Shown here piece after piece: positions 15,275 to 23,515 of a stretch of 23,515 nucleotides of DNA (its first letter is position 1; each line of letters opens with the position of its first letter). The translations under genes and the position numbers were made by a program. The notes under the pieces were generated by a model. It was not told where the DNA came from. It saw only the letters and a program-made list of their open reading frames with translations, and searched no databases. Source of the DNA: a virus. The stretch covers positions 1 to 23,515 of the IMG/VR virus record IMGVR_UViG_3300030106_001233. One strand, 5' to 3'.

Positions 15275-17215
15275 TTAAGTTAAATCAACGACTTCACAAG
15301 AGTCTGCTGTACAAGCTAATTCTCTACCACCTGTAGTAGTATCTTCTCTTTCAAACTCTTGTAGTTTTGACCAATCTATATTCTTTGGCATCTTATCCAT
15401 CCATTCATTATATTCTTTTTCTGTAATGTCTTGATAAGGTGCTTGCTTATAAGAGTGGTCGCTATGTGGTAGGAAACTAATACCTGATACTTCATCAAAA
15501 TGTTTATACACCCAAGCACCAACTTCCATCCATTCTTCTTCTCTAACTGTTATTGTAACAGAGGGTTTATGTTCACACCAATATCTTTGATACATCAACC
15601 ATGTTTCTAATTGCCATAAAGCAGACTTATCATTTCGCTTAATAGCATTAGGTGGTGATTTCATTGGAAAACTAAACACCATAACACTTTGAGGTTTCAT
15701 TACATCAGGTTCACTAGGTATGCCTTGCTCTATCATAAACTGTGTTAATGGGTCTTTTACATCACCTCTAACAGTTCTGATGTAATAATCATTATGTCTA
15801 GCATGAATACCACTAGCACTATCTACAAGCTGTGATACTGTGCCACTAGGTTTAACACAAGTAATAGCAGTGGATTGTGGTATTTCTAATTGCTTGGCAT
15901 AAACAGCATTTGTTGTTACAGCAGTTTCTTTTAAGTTTTCTAACACACATTTTAATATATGATTATCTATACTACCATTCTTAGGAACAAGTGTAGGACA
16001 ATCTAATATACCTGTTAAAGATACTCCTAATAATCTTTCTTCTTCTGTATTATCTTTCCATATCTTTCTAATATATTTAAAGTCTGTGAGTGTAGATTGA
16101 AACGTACCTAGTATTGTAGCAAGTTCTACCTTTTCTTGTAAAGTTTCTAATGTATCATTCTCTCTTGCGACAACTTCAGATAGGTTACAGAATTGATAAG
16201 GTCTTAGTATAATCTCACTACAAGGATTACAACCAAATGCAAACTCTGTATTTCTTCTACCATTTTTCTCTGCTTGTTTAACAGCAGACTTACGATTAAA
16301 GATACCTCTTTCTCCTGACTTACTTTCTACAAGAGCTAACCACTCTCGCATAAATGTTTCCATTTGTACTTTACCTTTATAGGCAACAGAGTTATTTGCT
16401 AATGCTCGTTGTCCTTCGTTTTCCCACCAAGAACCTGACTTAGCGTGTCGCATTTGGTCATCACCAAGATTAGATAAACTAATCAATGCTGACCTTCTAA
16501 CACCACCTACAACAACAACTTCACCAATCTTACACATAATATCATGGCACTCTACTGGATATAATCTTCTACCTGCAGCATTTTTAAATATGCTTACACA
16601 AAAATGATATAAGTCTACCAAAGGTTGAGGACCTGATGCTCTACCACCAAATGTCTTTAATCTTGCACCTGCAGGTCTTACATCTTCAATATTAAACTGA
16701 GGTATCTGTCCTGCATATAACATAGCAATTAACTCTCTTAAAGATTTAGCCCAACCGGGTCTGCTATCTCCTACCTTAATTACTGTGTCAGATTCATGGA
16801 AGTCTTCATTAATGATAGGTAGTTTGTCTACATTTTCTCTTTCTACAGAAAACCCTACACCTGTGCCACACATTAATATATACATACATTCATCAAAAGC
16901 TCTAGGGCTATCTATAGGTATATATGAACAGTTATACCCTGCAACATGGCATCTATCTAAAGCAGGTCCTGATGTCATCAATGCTCGCATACTTGGCATA
17001 ATCTGCTGTGAGTATATTGCATCATATAATCTACTCTTTAATTCTGTAGGGATTGTATAATCATAATTATTCTCTAAATGATTACTCATATAATCCATAT
17101 ATCTTGTTACAGTTTCTCCCCAAGATTCTCTTCTTTGCTCATCATCTTTCCATCTAGCATACCTAGATAGTGCTATAAAGTTTTGGTAGTCTGTTGGTAG
17201 TGCATTATTAATCAT
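15275..17215 (-). CDS. nrdJ: Ribonucleotide reductase, class II (adenosylcobalamin-dependent)
   Basis: This 646-residue enzyme reduces ribonucleotides to deoxyribonucleotides for phage DNA synthesis, using vitamin B12 coenzyme to make its radical. The sequence shows AGYNCSYIPID with C96 and CGTGVGFSVE nearby. NPCSEI holds the radical cysteine C332 and E334, and QFCNLSE carries the partner cysteine C343. KPSGTVSQLVDSASGIHARH is the phosphate-binding region. The C-terminus ACTADSCEVVDLT has the redox pair C635/C640 that regenerates the active-site disulfide. It is shorter than the 739-residue Lactobacillus monomeric enzyme, consistent with phage versions. GGAGAG precedes the ATG. No nrdAB or class I small subunit is seen in the window. 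Class II needs no oxygen and no iron, but depends on host cobalamin. Confidence 0.93.
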   Translation of the reverse strand: MINNALPTDYQNFIALSRYARWKDDEQRRESWGETVTRYMDYMSNHLENNYDYTIPTELKSRLYDAIYSQQIMPSMRALMTSGPALDRCHVAGYNCSYIPIDSPRAFDECMYILMCGTGVGFSVERENVDKLPIINEDFHESDTVIKVGDSRPGWAKSLRELIAMLYAGQIPQFNIEDVRPAGARLKTFGGRASGPQPLVDLYHFCVSIFKNAAGRRLYPVECHDIMCKIGEVVVVGGVRRSALISLSNLGDDQMRHAKSGSWWENEGQRALANNSVAYKGKVQMETFMREWLALVESKSGERGIFNRKSAVKQAEKNGRRNTEFAFGCNPCSEIILRPYQFCNLSEVVARENDTLETLQEKVELATILGTFQSTLTDFKYIRKIWKDNTEEERLLGVSLTGILDCPTLVPKNGSIDNHILKCVLENLKETAVTTNAVYAKQLEIPQSTAITCVKPSGTVSQLVDSASGIHARHNDYYIRTVRGDVKDPLTQFMIEQGIPSEPDVMKPQSVMVFSFPMKSPPNAIKRNDKSALWQLETWLMYQRYWCEHKPSVTITVREEEWMEVGAWVYKHFDEVSGISFLPHSDHSYKQAPYQDITEKEYNEWMDKMPKNIDWSKLQEFEREDTTTGGRELACTADSCEVVDLT

Positions 17216-18182: not shown

Positions 18183-18363
18183 CTGAAGCAGAATAACCAA
18201 GAGCTTTTAGTTCTTCACGTACAGCTTTCTCTGCTTCTTGCTTTGCTTGTAATGCAGTCCGTAAACTTGCTGTTCGTTTTTCCCTAAATTCTTTTTTCTT
18301 TTCCATCAAAGCCTTTTCCATTTCTTTGATTTCTTCAGCTAACATTTCCATTTCATTATCCAT
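18142..18363 (-). CDS. Small coiled-coil protein
   Basis: A 73-residue protein. Residues about 2-55 are a continuous charged helix (MLAEEIKEMEKALMEKKKEF, then RTALQAKQEAEKAVREELK) with a heptad-like pattern. A short globular end, LGYSASDEWSPFRYK, follows. GGAAAGGAG precedes the ATG. The start overlaps the end of the Cas4-like gene by 8 bases and the end overlaps endonuclease I by 41. The position between two nucleases suggests a role in DNA handling, but that is only context; no known family was recognised. Confidence 0.65.
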   Translation of the reverse strand: MDNEMEMLAEEIKEMEKALMEKKKEFREKRTASLRTALQAKQEAEKAVREELKALGYSASDEWSPFRYKSVFF

Positions 18364-19210
18364 TTTTATACTCCTTTCCTATATATGTATACGGCACAGT
18401 TTTTTTATTCTGTGCTTTAGAAACAAGAGATGGTAACTCTTGAAGAGTTGACCAACACTCTTTTCTATAAGAACAAAAGGAACAAGTTTTACATAGAATT
18501 TTATTACCTGTTGGTTTACTTCTAAATAATTCTTCTTCCTCTTCAAAAGACCTTTCAAACTTATTCTCTATAAGTTTGTTCATCTTTTTATCTAATATAG
18601 ATATTTCTTTTTCAATGTCAATATCTGCGGGAACATATTTAAATTGTCCATTACCTTTATTAACAACCCACCAACCACCTATTTTTTTCTTAGATGCTTT
18701 TGCATATCCTGCTAGTTGCCCAATATATCCAAATCCATCATTTTTAGATAATGAATCAAAAGATTCAAATTTATTTTTATAAGACCAATCAGAAGCAGAT
18801 TTTATATCATCAACTGCACCATCAATAATAATATCATAAGTGCCTGATATATCAGCATTAGATAATTGTAGAGTAACTTTTGAACTATTCTTATATTCAA
18901 CTCCAGCTTCTTTTAACAAACCTTTAAAAACTGCTTCAACAATATCTCCAATCATCATATTCATAATAAAAGTATTAGATTTAGGTAGTGCAGTTTTAGG
19001 TTTATTTTTATCAAACCACAACTGACAATATGGTTTTCCTATATTAGACATACGAAAAGCAAAAGATTTTTTATTGCTTCCAAATTGTCTTCTAAGAGCA
19101 TCCTCTATGTCTGAAGATACTTGTTTTATAGTTACCTCAGACATAGTGGCATTTTGATTTGAAACATCTAACATATATTTATGTAAGGATAGTTCTCTAG
19201 GATGATGCAT
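18356..19210 (-). CDS. Cas4/RecB-like PD-(D/E)XK nuclease with Fe-S cluster
   Basis: A 284-residue nuclease. The PD-(D/E)XK core shows GDIVEAVF (E92), SGTYDIIIDG (D126), VDDIKSAS (D135 and K137) and the QxxxY motif GQLAGYAKA (Q165/Y169), the order found in RecB and Cas4 nucleases. Near the C-terminus, CKTCSFCSYRKEC supplies C240, C243, C246 and C252, and C62 near the N-terminus could complete a 4Fe-4S cluster, as in Cas4 and AddB. Such proteins usually chew DNA ends. Phages use them in recombination or host-DNA breakdown, and no cas1/cas2 or CRISPR repeats are visible here. Its ATG shares one base with the stop of the upstream ssDNA-binding gene, with AGAGGA upstream. Confidence 0.85.
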   Translation of the reverse strand: MHHPRELSLHKYMLDVSNQNATMSEVTIKQVSSDIEDALRRQFGSNKKSFAFRMSNIGKPYCQLWFDKNKPKTALPKSNTFIMNMMIGDIVEAVFKGLLKEAGVEYKNSSKVTLQLSNADISGTYDIIIDGAVDDIKSASDWSYKNKFESFDSLSKNDGFGYIGQLAGYAKASKKKIGGWWVVNKGNGQFKYVPADIDIEKEISILDKKMNKLIENKFERSFEEEEELFRSKPTGNKILCKTCSFCSYRKECWSTLQELPSLVSKAQNKKTVPYTYIGKEYKNG

Positions 19211-20145
19211 TATTTATCCTCTATATCCATTTCAATAAAATCTTCAACTACACTAGCATCTTCATCTGAAATTTCATCTTGTCTTTGAATAGCTTTGCTA
19301 TCCCATTCCTTACAGATATAATCATTATAATTTTTTACCCACTCTAAAAAATCATTAAATAATTTTTCATCCTCTGTAGAAATAGAATGATTAACAGAAC
19401 TATCTATACTACAAATAGGAGTATAGTATTTAGAACCACTAGAAAGTTCATGCTCTTTAGGAGCAGAAAAAACTATATCATGTTGAATAGGTAATCTCTG
19501 TGTCTTTGCAAATTCTTGAAAAGGCACTCCAACAGTTTTAAATGCTTCTTTATTATCTATCTCCCATATAAAAGGAGTTTTTATTTCTTTCTTAATTTCA
19601 TCACCATTAGAATCCATAGGATTTATCATGGTTACTACACCAAACATAACTCTAACTCTTTTTATATTTCTTATTAAGTCTTGCATCTCTGTAGGAAGAG
19701 ATTTAAAATCTTCTACATATCCTGTAGGTTTTCCACAGTTAAACTTACCTGTATTATCTTTTAAATCTTGATTTAAAGTATTGGACATAATAGTTCTATG
19801 AAAAGAACCTCTAGGTTCTCCCTCTTTAGCATTAATATTCGCTACATATCTGCGATACATAAATCTTTGCATAAATGGTTGAACTCTTATATCCTTAGAA
19901 TATACAAATTTAGAAGTATCATCTTCTAATATTTCTAGTCTATAAGTTCCACCTTCGATTACTTCAACCTTAGTAAGTTTACCCTTAATCTCTTCTTGAC
20001 CCATGATAGGCGAGTGCCAAAGTCTTAATCTATTTAGATTAGTTGATTTTTTATTTTTATTAGAATTATCGTCAGATATACCCATCACTTGAGCCATAGC
20101 TGAATAATTCTCAGTATTTATCGTTGTCATTTCTGTTGTTGTCAT
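19210..20145 (-). CDS. Probable ssDNA-binding protein
   Basis: A 311-residue protein. The first 45 residues are low-complexity, followed by mixed beta-strands (IKGKLTKVEVIEGGTYRLEI). Scattered aromatic/basic stretches (QPFMQRFMYRRYVAN) could contact nucleic acid. The C-terminus is strongly acidic (DEISDEDASVVEDFIEMDIE), the usual partner-recruiting tail of ssDNA-binding proteins such as T7 gp2.5 and E. coli SSB. It lies between the polymerase and the Cas4-like nuclease, in the same operon as them, which fits. No zinc or nuclease motifs are seen. AAAGGAG precedes the ATG. The assignment rests on the acidic tail, size and neighbours; it could instead be another replication accessory protein. 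Confidence 0.5.
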   Translation of the reverse strand: MTTTEMTTINTENYSAMAQVMGISDDNSNKNKKSTNLNRLRLWHSPIMGQEEIKGKLTKVEVIEGGTYRLEILEDDTSKFVYSKDIRVQPFMQRFMYRRYVANINAKEGEPRGSFHRTIMSNTLNQDLKDNTGKFNCGKPTGYVEDFKSLPTEMQDLIRNIKRVRVMFGVVTMINPMDSNGDEIKKEIKTPFIWEIDNKEAFKTVGVPFQEFAKTQRLPIQHDIVFSAPKEHELSSGSKYYTPICSIDSSVNHSISTEDEKLFNDFLEWVKNYNDYICKEWDSKAIQRQDEISDEDASVVEDFIEMDIEDK

Positions 20146-20203: not shown

Positions 20204-20232
20204 GTTATATCATACTACATTGTGTGTGTCAA
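20204..20232 (-). promoter_or_regulatory. Near-consensus promoter before the ssDNA-binding gene
   Basis: Reading the minus strand, TTGACA (20227-20232), a 17-base spacer, and TATAAC (20204-20209) with TG one base before the -10 (extended -10). The -35 lies in the last codons of the polymerase gene and the -10 directly follows its stop codon. Predicted start is near 20197, ahead of the hairpin and ssDNA-binding gene. A good sequence match; activity is inferred. Confidence 0.55.
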
Positions 20233-22228
20233 GCCAGTTATTACCAATTTTTGCTTCTAATTCTAGAGGAACATTAAAATCTATATTCCATCTTTGATTT
20301 ATTAAAGTTGGTAAGAAGTTATTTGTATTTTGTATTATAAATAACACTTGTTTTTGTTCTTCGGGATGAACGTCTATAACAATAGAATCATGTACTGTGT
20401 TCACAATACAAGATTGTAAAGGGTTTAGCAGTTTATCTATATACAATAATGCTATAGGAACAATATCAGCAGTAGCAAAAGATTGTACTGGATAATTTTT
20501 AATCTGTGTAAAGTTAGTTACACTTCCATTTCTTCTTCTAGAAACTGAAGGAAAAGAAAACTCTCTGCCTGAAGGTGTAACTATTTTTTTAGTTGTTATA
20601 GCTTCTTTAGCCAATTTGGTATGCCAAACTTCGACCCCTCTGTATTTTTTTGTAAAGTGTTTATAGTATTGAGCTTCTTCTGCTGTTCTTCCGTATCCCG
20701 TTGCTCCATATAACGGAGCAAAGGTATGTGCTTTCGCATCTTGCCGAGATATATTTTGACCTGCACTCGTAATAATATCGGCAGTATACGAATGTACATC
20801 AAACCCTGTTTTAACTTCATTTATTGCCACCTTGTCTTGTGATAAATAGGCAGCAGTGCGAAACTCTAACTGAGCAAAGTCAGCTTCAAGTATCTTGCCA
20901 CCCTCAAATCGTGATACAAATACTTTTTTTACTGGAAATGTACCACCTCTAGGCATATTCTGCATATTAGGGTCTGCTCCTGAAAGTCTACCTGTTGCTG
21001 TTCTATGTTGTAATAATCTAACATGAAGCATACCATCTTGTTTTGTAAAAGATTTTATACCATCAACAAAAGATGATAAGTAAGTATCTAAAGCACTTAA
21101 CCTTTTAACACGACCTAAGAATGTAACTGCATCAGACATATTTTTTGACTTAGCAAACTGTTCTAACAAATCTAAATTTACTTTATTTGTAGTAAATCCA
21201 TTAGCACTAACCCATTTAGCATTAGGTGCTACAAATCTTAAACCTGCTACATTTTTTGTAGGAACAAAAATATACCCTTGCCCATTACAAGTTTTGCAAG
21301 TCGTGGGTTTTGCATAAGGATTTCCATTAACTTTTGTTTTTGTATAAGAACCAAACCCCTTACAAATATTACATTGTTTCGCTGTAGTTTTATACAATAC
21401 ATCAGAATGACTTACTATCATAGTTTTATAGTCAGACTTTGACATATAAGGTTGAAATGAATTTTGCCACATAGATTTATCTTTTGGTTTACGACTATAT
21501 ATTATCCATGATAATTGTTCAGGACTATTAAGGTTAATAGGAGTATCTCCCATTAAGTCTGTAACTTGTTTCTGTAAAGAATCTTGTAACTCTTTCTGTT
21601 CTTTTTCAAAGTCTGTTTTAACTTTATGTAATTCATCACTATCGACCTTAAATCCTCTGTGGTAAATCTTAGCTAAACACATAGACACTTCATTTGTAAG
21701 TAAAATTGTGTCCATTAATCCTGAATGTTTTACTGTGTTTAATTTTTTGTATAACCTATCAGATAATTCTTGTGTTGCTCGTAAATCTGCACATAAATAT
21801 TCTATTAATTCTACTCTAGGTATCTCATCAACATTCAAACCTTTTGCAAAATATTGTTTTAAAGTATCTTGCTTTTTAGTTTCTAAGTCATACCTTTCAG
21901 CACAGGCTTCAAGAGATAATGGTTTTTTAATACCTCGTTGAAGTACATACTCTGCTAACATGGTATCAAATATAGGACCATCATATTTAAATCCACACTC
22001 CCATAACCAAACTAAATCATACGCAATATTATGACCAATTAAAATAGTTGCTCGGTCTAATAACTCTTGTAACCCAGCAAAATTATTCTTTTCGTCAAAG
22101 AGATGATATGTGTTATCTTCTTGCTTTGCACCCACTAAAACTAATCTATTAGTAGGTTCAAATGGGTCAAGATGTTTTTTATCATCTCTTTTAGTTATTG
22201 TATTCTCAACATCTATTGTAAGTTTCAT
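20210..22228 (-). CDS. polA: Family-A DNA polymerase with DnaJ-type zinc finger
   Basis: This 672-residue replicative polymerase has an N-terminal 3'-5' exonuclease (D6-V-E8; GHNIAYDL with D71; YLCADLRATQ with D148), then a central insertion with CNICKGFG (C286, C289) and CKTCNGQG (C311, C314), a zinc-binding CxxCxGxG pair as in DnaJ. The polymerase part follows: TATGRLSGADPNMQNMPRG, motif A EADFAQLEFR (D450), the O-helix RQDAKAHTFAPLYG (R495, K499, F503 and Y507), and motif C TVHDSIVIDV (H613, D614). F503 falls at the position called 762 in E. coli Pol I, where phages vary between Phe, Tyr and Leu. No 5'-3' exonuclease domain is present. A DnaJ-like insertion at this place is known from the HMO-2011 group. 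AGGAG precedes the ATG. Confidence 0.95.
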   Translation of the reverse strand: MKLTIDVENTITKRDDKKHLDPFEPTNRLVLVGAKQEDNTYHLFDEKNNFAGLQELLDRATILIGHNIAYDLVWLWECGFKYDGPIFDTMLAEYVLQRGIKKPLSLEACAERYDLETKKQDTLKQYFAKGLNVDEIPRVELIEYLCADLRATQELSDRLYKKLNTVKHSGLMDTILLTNEVSMCLAKIYHRGFKVDSDELHKVKTDFEKEQKELQDSLQKQVTDLMGDTPINLNSPEQLSWIIYSRKPKDKSMWQNSFQPYMSKSDYKTMIVSHSDVLYKTTAKQCNICKGFGSYTKTKVNGNPYAKPTTCKTCNGQGYIFVPTKNVAGLRFVAPNAKWVSANGFTTNKVNLDLLEQFAKSKNMSDAVTFLGRVKRLSALDTYLSSFVDGIKSFTKQDGMLHVRLLQHRTATGRLSGADPNMQNMPRGGTFPVKKVFVSRFEGGKILEADFAQLEFRTAAYLSQDKVAINEVKTGFDVHSYTADIITSAGQNISRQDAKAHTFAPLYGATGYGRTAEEAQYYKHFTKKYRGVEVWHTKLAKEAITTKKIVTPSGREFSFPSVSRRRNGSVTNFTQIKNYPVQSFATADIVPIALLYIDKLLNPLQSCIVNTVHDSIVIDVHPEEQKQVLFIIQNTNNFLPTLINQRWNIDFNVPLELEAKIGNNWLDTHNVV

Positions 22229-22817: not shown

Positions 22818-23225
22818 TTAAAAATTATAACCTAATGCCATCTTAGCATCTTCACTCATTCTTTCAGGTGTCCAAGCAGGTTGCCAAATTAAATGTACAG
22901 AAACTAAACCAACATTTTTAAGTTTAGATACTTTATTAGCTACTTCTTTTGGCAGTTCCCCTGCAACTGGGCAACTTGGAGATGTTAATGACATTTCTAT
23001 ATCAACATCCCCATTATCATGTTTATGTATATTATAAATTAAACCTAACTCATAAATATTAACAGGTATTTCAGGGTCATATATTTTTGATATAACATTT
23101 AATATATCTGCCCTTGAAACTATATCTTTTTGTTTTATATTTTTTAATTTTAAACCTGCCTTTGCTACATAACCTTCATCAACAGAAGGTAAAAAATCAT
23201 TTAAAGATGGGTTCTCTTTATCCAT
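22818..23225 (-). CDS. SufT/MIP18-like Fe-S cluster assembly protein (DUF59)
   Basis: A 135-residue protein. After about 38 less conserved residues, the DUF59 domain shows YDPEIPVNIYELGLIYNI (49-66), then VDIEMSLTSPSCPVAGELP (74-92) with the family cysteine C85, and WQPAWTPERMSEDAKMALG near the end. Cellular relatives (SufT, PaaD, MIP18) help deliver or install Fe-S clusters on target proteins. In a phage it might serve its own Fe-S proteins, such as the Cas4-like nuclease, or host enzymes during infection. The upstream site is weak and the gene follows the oxygenase gene by eight bases. Family membership is clear; the phage role is inferred. Confidence 0.88.
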   Translation of the reverse strand: MDKENPSLNDFLPSVDEGYVAKAGLKLKNIKQKDIVSRADILNVISKIYDPEIPVNIYELGLIYNIHKHDNGDVDIEMSLTSPSCPVAGELPKEVANKVSKLKNVGLVSVHLIWQPAWTPERMSEDAKMALGYNF

Positions 23226-23233
23226 GATAATAA

Positions 23234-23515
23234 TTATTCTTCAAAACTTTGAAGTGTTGAAAAATCATCCTGTTTTGGTTTTTGTTTTGGAATCTCTAGG
23301 AAGTTCATGTTCATACTAAACGACCTACGTTCTCCTTTTGTTTTAAATGGATAGACACAATGAAATAACTGTGCAGGAAATATATAAAAATCTCCTACTC
23401 TAGGTTTTACTAAAAAGTTTGTACAAGAATATCCTGCTGAAGTACCACTTGCAAACTGTATGTGTCCATGCGAAGGATGGTGGTCTTTATAATCTTCTTC
23501 CCACTCTTCTTCTAT
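23234..23515 (-). CDS. 2OG-Fe(II) oxygenase (3' part)
   Basis: The gene enters from the right edge; 93 residues plus a TAA stop are visible. The segment PRVGDFYIFPAQLFHCVYPF carries the distal iron-binding His (H52 of the visible part), and GERRSFSMNMNF supplies the Arg expected to bind 2-oxoglutarate (R63 or R64). This HxxxP...R arrangement is the C-terminal half of the double-stranded beta-helix oxygenase fold common in marine phages. The first His/Asp pair lies upstream of the window or near the visible HGHIQF. Substrates could be protein, nucleic acid or small molecules; nothing here decides it. It lies eight bases before the SufT-like gene. Confidence 0.8.
   Translation of the reverse strand: MEEEWEEDYKDHHPSHGHIQFASGTSAGYSCTNFLVKPRVGDFYIFPAQLFHCVYPFKTKGERRSFSMNMNFLEIPKQKPKQDDFSTLQSFEE

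What the first reader, a model, noticed from the sequence alone, without database searches (positions are those of the whole stretch)
20210..22228. DnaJ-type zinc finger inside a replicative polymerase
A CxxCxGxG pair (C286/C289 and C311/C314) sits between exonuclease and polymerase parts, about where T7 polymerase binds its processivity partner further on. The insertion is reported for HMO-2011 but its role is unknown. It might grip DNA, recruit a host or phage partner, or replace a clamp. F503 at the 762-equivalent position adds a testable biochemical trait.
Basis: partly seen in the sequence, partly recalled or inferred. Interest (0 to 1): 0.6.

Follow-up and report, generated by a model that had tools for sequence, protein, structure and literature searches.

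The report
Zinc-tipped thumb in marine phage polymerase
A common marine phage group copies its DNA with a polymerase whose "thumb" carries a small zinc-held, positively charged arm, at a spot that touches the DNA in related enzymes, so it probably helps the enzyme hold on; the arm itself was already reported, but its exact place and likely job were not.

Summary
The gene lies on the minus strand (22228..20210, 672 aa) and is a family-A DNA polymerase with intact 3'-5' exonuclease residues, C286/C289 and C311/C314, and F503 at the E. coli 762 position. The insertion is already published for all HMO-2011-type phages, so the window is a new member of a known kind; no role is given in the papers read.

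What I add: (1) The insert (about 245-348) is not between the exonuclease and polymerase domains. It replaces the H1-H2 loop of the thumb, one loop away from T7's thioredoxin-binding domain (between H and H1). (2) AlphaFold2 (pLDDT 89) predicts a beta-arm capped by one zinc knuckle resembling the inner half of the DnaJ zinc domain. (3) In 249 aligned relatives the knuckle encloses a conserved basic hairpin, [KR]x[KR]K[DN]GxP[YF]. (4) In Taq this same loop touches the primer backbone, and E507K there tightens DNA binding about 90-fold.

Best explanation: a zinc-stapled grip on the exiting duplex, needing no thioredoxin. Main rival: a dock for the acidic-tailed, gp32-like SSB candidate encoded next to it. 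Neither is shown by experiment. A DnaJ-like chaperone role is not supported. F503 is invariant across the group.

The parts
20210..22228 (-). Family-A DNA polymerase of HMO-2011 type, 672 aa
21740..22228 (-). 3'-5' exonuclease part (residues 1-163); D6, E8, N67, D71, Y144, D148 kept
   Evidence: PF01612; conservation
21551..21640 (-). Thumb helix H (residues 197-226)
   Evidence: AF2; alignment
21497..21523 (-). Thumb helix H1 (residues 236-244, within INLNSPEQLSWIIYS)
   Evidence: AF2; aligns with bacterial FNINSPKQLGQILFE and T7 FNPSSRDHIQKKL
21185..21496 (-). The insert in the H1-H2 loop (residues 245-348): helical hairpin 251-257/264-274, beta arm 279-285/319-327, zinc knuckle at its tip
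   Evidence: AF2 (pLDDT 76-94 there); alignment with bacterial PolA
21275..21373 (-). Zinc knuckle (residues 286-318), like motifs 2-3 of the DnaJ central domain
   Evidence: PF00684 profile positions 13-54
21362..21373 (-). C286-N-I-C289 (first CxxC)
21287..21298 (-). C311-K-T-C314 (second CxxC)
21314..21340 (-). Basic hairpin between the knuckles, residues 297-305 (KTKVNGNPY; group pattern [KR]x[KR]K[DN]GxP[YF])
   Evidence: column counts over 249 sequences; K/R columns
21146..21184 (-). Thumb helix H2 (residues 349-361)
   Evidence: AF2
20213..21046 (-). Palm and fingers (residues 395-672); D450, R495, K499, Y507, D614 kept
   Evidence: PF00476
20720..20722 (-). F503, equivalent of E. coli Pol I F762
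   Evidence: alignment with Pol I; invariant in 249
19210..20145 (-). Neighbouring 311-aa gene: candidate single-stranded-DNA-binding protein (gp32-like core)
   Evidence: no Pfam, PHROG or PDB sequence match; AF2; structural second look; orthologues at 247 of the fetched loci
19213..19287 (-). Acidic C-terminal tail of that protein (last 25 aa)
   Evidence: net charge -2 to -13 in 232 orthologues, median -8

Best explanation
The insert is a thumb-tip DNA grip. In place of the short lysine-rich H1-H2 loop of bacterial Pol I, the phage polymerase has an arm of about 100 residues: a helical hairpin, then a two-stranded beta ribbon, capped by one zinc ion held by C286, C289, C311 and C314. The zinc staples the base of a basic hairpin (residues 297-305), so that its lysines reach the sugar-phosphate backbone of the duplex leaving the active site. 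This should raise affinity for primed template and the time spent on DNA without a separate clamp or host thioredoxin. Shown here: the position, the conservation of the four ligands, the conserved basic hairpin, and intact polymerase and exonuclease residues. Inferred: zinc as the metal (from the DnaJ-like motif), the arm facing DNA (from the role of the same loop in Taq), and the effect on DNA holding.
For: Alignment with bacterial PolA puts the insert exactly in the PPIKKTKTG loop between H1 and H2. T7's thioredoxin-binding domain ends just before its H1 (FNPSS at residue 334), so the two insertions use neighbouring loops. AF2 gives a confident arm and knuckle, and the core matches Bst, Taq and Klenow Pol I (Z about 34, rmsd 2.9, 531 aligned). 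K/R at 280, 297 and 299 in all 249 aligned sequences, K300 in 247, K/R331 in 97% or more, G302 in all; only one acidic column (250) is as conserved in the insert; residues 279-327 have a net positive charge in every sequence. In Taq, E507 lies in the H1H2 loop, 3.8 A from a primer phosphate, and E507K lowers the Kd from 102 to 1.1 nM (PMC4132270). T7's clamp works through lysines that touch the backbone (PMC5984650), and plant organellar polymerases carry a lysine-rich thumb insertion (PMC7699545). The four Asp311 variants all have FH[DN] shortly after motif 2, which suggests the metal site is kept with other ligands.
Against: No DNA was modelled and no coordinates were at hand, so the arm could point away from the duplex. 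E507K in Taq raised affinity but not processivity (20 nt in both), so tighter grip need not mean longer runs. The window itself has V300 where 247 of 249 have lysine. dN/dS in the arm (0.15) is low but higher than in the rest (0.05-0.11), so it is less constrained than the catalytic parts. The metal has not been measured.
Confidence: 0.58

Rival explanations
1. [quoted passage not shown] This would parallel T7, where acidic tails of gp2.5 and of the helicase bind basic patches on or near the thioredoxin-binding domain. Docking and DNA gripping could both be true.
For: The next gene has orthologues at 247 of the fetched loci; its predicted fold is closest to T4/RB69 gp32 cores among the chains compared (four gp32 entries lead, Z 6.4-7.5, while most other OB folds score about 3), and its last 25 residues are acidic in all 232 orthologues. 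T7's thumb domain binds the SSB tail (PMC7699545) and the helicase tail (PMC12593628).
Against: Zobellviridae relatives without the zinc insert also have acidic, DDIPF-like tails on a gene near the polymerase, so the tail does not track the insert. The T7-like helicase version is not supported: the helicases upstream end in a neutral to basic TARYxx tail. Z 7.5 is below the level that separates true relatives from common arrangements.
Confidence: 0.2
2. The zinc knuckle is only a structural staple: it keeps a long loop folded and soluble without a direct contact of its own.
For: Arm sequence is less constrained than the rest (dN/dS 0.15), and related phages carry a long cysteine-free loop at the same place.
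Against: The basic hairpin is conserved beyond what folding needs, and no HMO-type polymerase among those fetched lacks the insert.
Confidence: 0.15
3. A chaperone-type role: the DnaJ-like piece brings host DnaK or handles unfolded protein at the origin, as DnaJ does for phage lambda.
For: PF00684 is the best Pfam match of the insert; the idea is raised in PMC9038755.
Against: Only two of four motifs are present (one zinc site), there is no J domain and no HPD motif in the protein, and the match is below the family cut-off.
Confidence: 0.03
4. The four cysteines hold an iron-sulphur cluster, loaded by the SufT/MIP18-like protein encoded upstream in this window (23225..22818).
For: The FeS_assembly_P gene is real (E 7.8e-17) and close to the polymerase gene.
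Against: No match above the family cut-off in 13 other records with the same polymerase and no blastp match in the loci fetched; Pfam's best matches to the insert are zinc-type domains. The nearby Cas4-like exonuclease is a likelier client.
Confidence: 0.03

Closest known systems
DNA polymerases of HMO-2011-type phages (Puniceispirillum phage HMO-2011, Roseobacter phages CRP-1/2/3, Pelagibacter phage HTVC033P)
   Same: Same gene: exonuclease, insert with two CxxC motifs, polymerase; 64% identical to HMO-2011 and 43% to HTVC033P over the full length; same downstream SSB-candidate gene
   Different: The window has V300 in place of the lysine and a different upstream gene order (Fe-S and 2OG-oxygenase-like genes where HMO-2011 has helicase)
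Thioredoxin-binding domain of T7 DNA polymerase
   Same: Basic insertion at the thumb tip of a phage family-A replicase; thought to hold the duplex
   Different: Different loop (H-H1 against H1-H2); no zinc knuckle; needs host thioredoxin
H1-H2 loop of Taq/Bst/Klenow Pol I
   Same: Same place; lysine-bearing loop that contacts primer phosphates
   Different: About 10 residues there against about 100 here
DnaJ central domain (PF00684)
   Same: The knuckle matches the inner hairpin (motifs 2-3)
   Different: Half the motifs, one zinc site, no J domain, below the family cut-off
Thumb insertions of plant organellar polymerases
   Same: Lysine-rich insertion in the thumb thought to clamp DNA (PMC7699545)
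   Different: No zinc motif is described in the passages read; not shown to be related

Membership tests
HMO-2011-type DNA polymerase | Family-A polymerase domain and 3'-5' exonuclease domain | tested here: met
   PF00476 E 1.3e-51 and PF01612 E 2.4e-9; catalytic residues kept
HMO-2011-type DNA polymerase | Partial DnaJ domain with two CxxCxGxG motifs | tested here: met
   C286-G293 and C311-G318; PF00684 match
HMO-2011-type DNA polymerase | Closest relatives are HMO-2011-type phages | tested here: met
   Top 12 of 3131 phage records are HMO-2011-type phages; the next full-length matches are below 29% identity
HMO-2011-type phage | Capsid and terminase large subunit of this group | not tested
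   The window is a 23.5-kb fragment; these genes were not sought
DnaJ/Hsp40 central domain | Four CxxCxGxG motifs forming two zinc sites | tested here: not met
   Two motifs only
DnaJ/Hsp40 central domain | Pfam cut-off of 32.7 bits | tested here: not met
   24.0 bits whole protein, 30.0 insert alone; HMO-2011's own copy just passes
DnaJ/Hsp40 co-chaperone | J domain with HPD motif | tested here: not met
   No HPD in the protein; no J-domain match
T7-type thioredoxin-binding domain | Insertion between thumb helices H and H1 | tested here: not met
   Insert is between H1 and H2
T7-type thioredoxin-binding domain | Binds thioredoxin | not testable with these tools
   Needs protein
gp32-like SSB (neighbouring gene) | OB-fold core like gp32 | tested here: inconclusive
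   1gpc Z 7.5, rmsd 4.3, 179 aligned; no sequence match
gp32-like SSB (neighbouring gene) | Acidic C-terminal tail | tested here: met
   All 232 orthologues
gp32-like SSB (neighbouring gene) | Binds single-stranded DNA | not testable with these tools
   Needs protein

The most novel reading that the evidence does not exclude
A family-A replicase that carries its own zinc-rigidified half-clamp: the arm both grips the exiting duplex and docks the acidic tail of a phage gp32-like SSB, giving processive replication with no thioredoxin, sliding clamp or other host factor. It would be an independent solution, one loop away from the one T7 uses, in one of the most abundant marine phage groups.
Probability: 0.2. 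Interest if true: 0.65.

Novelty: new member of a known kind. Interest (0 to 1): 0.38.

Why it matters
HMO-2011-type phages are among the most abundant in the ocean, and all reported members carry this polymerase. If the arm is a built-in grip, it shows that phage family-A polymerases solved the processivity problem at least twice at the thumb tip, once with a borrowed host protein (T7) and once with a zinc ion. The precise position and the basic hairpin turn an unexplained "DnaJ domain" into a short list of residues to test, and the SSB candidate fills a likely gap in the annotated replisome of this group.

Tried and rejected
Insert-only tblastn in 50,697 phage records: only the 12 HMO-2011-type records plus one weak DnaJ protein, so no other phage protein with this knuckle was found there. 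Scan of bacterial and archaeal genomes: of 32 loci found, the only two close relatives (55% and 65% identical) are on contigs binned as MAGs, which look like stray phage contigs; the rest look like ordinary PolA. Insert-profile scan of viral contigs gave polymerases; in 22 of 80 loci my motif filter found no ORF and I did not follow these up. A scan with the zinc-less Stenotrophomonas phage polymerase gave one locus and no intermediate. PDB sequence search with the insert: only weak DnaJ matches. Whole-model structure searches show the Pol I core; no row is specific to the insert, and I had no model of the insert alone to search with, so a known fold for it is not excluded. Rejected readings: iron-sulphur cluster, DnaJ co-chaperone, T7-like docking of a helicase tail. 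Papers: no experimental study of this insert was found in the open library.

Full report
WHAT IS THERE. The gene is on the minus strand, 22228..20210, 672 aa. It is a family-A DNA polymerase (PF00476 E 1.3e-51) with a 3'-5' exonuclease (PF01612 E 2.4e-9). D6, E8, N67, D71, Y144, D148 (exonuclease) and D450, R495, K499, F503, Y507, H613, D614 (polymerase) are kept in the 249 aligned relatives, apart from two rows with gaps at D6/E8, so the enzyme should polymerise and proofread. Twelve phage records, all HMO-2011-type, match at 37-64% identity over the full length; the other full-length matches are below 29%, and one partial match is at 32%. The window is a 23.5-kb virus record, probably a fragment.

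WHAT IS ALREADY KNOWN. A "partial DnaJ central domain" with two CxxCxGxG motifs is reported for HMO-2011, three RCA phages (PMC6918029), and later seven more phages and 207 metagenomic genomes (PMC9038755). The latter notes DnaJ's part in lambda replication, without a test. Phe762 with a DnaB helicase is also reported for HMO-2011-like phages (PMC6302109). So the finding is not new as such.

WHERE THE INSERT REALLY SITS. Alignment with bacterial PolA shows something more exact: bacterial FNINSPKQLGQILFE-KLELPPIKKTKTG-YSTNADVLEKL corresponds to INLNSPEQLSWIIYS-[insert]-GFTTNKVNLDLL. These are thumb helices H1 and H2, so the insert replaces the H1-H2 loop at the tip of the thumb. In T7 the extra domain ends just before its own H1 (FNPSSRDHIQKKL, residue 334), so T7's thioredoxin-binding domain is one loop earlier, between H and H1. 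Pfam agrees: a weaker second DNA_pol_A stretch lies upstream of the knuckle.

SHAPE. AlphaFold2 with 53 relatives (pLDDT 89.4; 76-94 across the insert) gives helix H 197-226, H1 236-244, a helical hairpin 251-257/264-274, two strands 279-285 and 319-327 that I read as the two sides of an arm, the cysteine knuckle 286-318 at its tip, then H2 349-361. The core matches Bst/Taq/Klenow Pol I (Z 34.9, rmsd 2.9, 531 aligned). No coordinates were available to place DNA. The knuckle corresponds to positions 13-54 of 65 of PF00684, its inner pair of motifs.

CONSERVATION. Of the fetched full-length relatives with the insert, 251 have all four cysteines, 250 of them with exactly 21 residues between the CxxC pairs, and four (three distinct sequences) have Asp for C311. 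Counts include some contigs fetched twice; in 53 sequences under 82% identity to each other the picture is the same. The first Gly of motif 2 is missing in 99 of 251, so "two CxxCxGxG motifs" is not strictly general. All four Asp sequences have FH[DN] just after motif 2, and a His at aligned position 322 is seen in none of 245 Cys sequences, which hints at a swapped ligand. Between the two CxxC pairs lies a basic hairpin: K/R at 297 and 299 in 249 of 249, K300 in 247, D/N301 in 248, G302 in all, P304 in 233, an aromatic at 305; K/R280 in all. The window has V300. Residues 279-327 are net positive in every sequence (median +5), while the exonuclease is net negative (median -10). dN/dS is 0.15 in the arm and 0.05-0.11 in the other domains: under purifying selection, a little looser than the core.

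HOW IT MOST LIKELY WORKS. In Taq the H1H2 loop lies 3.8 A from the phosphate between the 6th and 7th primer nucleotides, and one added lysine there (E507K) lowers the Kd from 102 to 1.1 nM, without changing processivity (PMC4132270). T7's thumb domain is described as an intrinsic clamp whose lysines touch the backbone (PMC5984650), and plant organellar polymerases have a lysine-rich thumb insertion (PMC7699545). An arm that replaces this loop, stiffened by a metal and tipped with near-invariant lysines, is therefore most simply a grip on the exiting duplex. Position and conservation are shown; zinc, orientation and effect are inferred.

THE PARTNER QUESTION. The next gene (20145..19210, 311 aa) is labelled hypothetical in HMO-2011; neither it nor its orthologues gave a convincing Pfam, PHROG or PDB sequence match. 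Orthologues are found at 247 of the fetched loci. Its AlphaFold2 model (pLDDT 87.6) finds nothing significant with Foldseek, but among the chains compared by the second aligner the leading rows are four gp32 entries (1gpc Z 7.5, rmsd 4.3, 179 aligned), followed by a phiC31 integrase-RDF chain (6.3) and then other OB folds near Z 3. Its last 25 residues are acidic in all 232 orthologues. I read it as a candidate SSB. T7's thumb domain receives acidic tails of SSB and helicase; here the helicase has no acidic tail, so the SSB is the only candidate of that sort seen. Zobellviridae relatives lack the knuckle yet have similar tails, so tail and knuckle do not track each other.

OTHER READINGS. A DnaJ co-chaperone role lacks two motifs and the J domain. 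An iron-sulphur reading was considered because an FeS_assembly_P gene lies upstream, but 13 records with the same polymerase have no match above its cut-off, while all 13 have the DnaJ-like motif.

DISTRIBUTION. The insert was found only in HMO-2011-type polymerases, and no polymerase of that group among those fetched lacked it. This fits one gain at the base of the group and no loss, though no tree was built to test this.

VERDICT. Real, already described, and now better placed. Interest is moderate: it is a well-defined, testable question in an abundant phage group, with no experiment found.

Noticed in passing
19210-20145 (-): Gene next to the polymerase, labelled hypothetical in HMO-2011, looks like a gp32-like single-stranded-DNA-binding protein with a conserved acidic tail.
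   Followed up: partly
22818-23225 (-): FeS_assembly_P (SufT/MIP18-like) gene, not found above cut-off in 13 other records with this polymerase; an open 2OG-oxygenase-like frame (by eye) follows at 23234-23515. HMO-2011 has the helicase at this place.
   Followed up: partly
18356-19210 (-): Cas4-like exonuclease with a C-terminal cysteine cluster (KTCSFCSYRKECW), a plausible iron-sulphur protein.
   Followed up: no
L087 (ICP2), L088, L089 (MEP401), L090, L086: Zobellviridae and similar phages split the polymerase gene into an exonuclease-plus-thumb frame and a palm-plus-fingers frame, in several cases with another small gene between; the same H1-H2 loop is long but has no CxxC pair.
   Followed up: partly
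L091:2427-2693: Stenotrophomonas phage StenR_269 has a small thioredoxin-domain gene just upstream of its polymerase, which lacks the zinc insert.
   Followed up: no
L058, L061, L039/L223: Natural Asp replacement of C311 together with FH[DN] just after motif 2, possibly a swapped metal ligand.
   Followed up: partly
15275-17215 (-): Class II (B12-dependent) ribonucleotide reductase in the same gene block.
   Followed up: no
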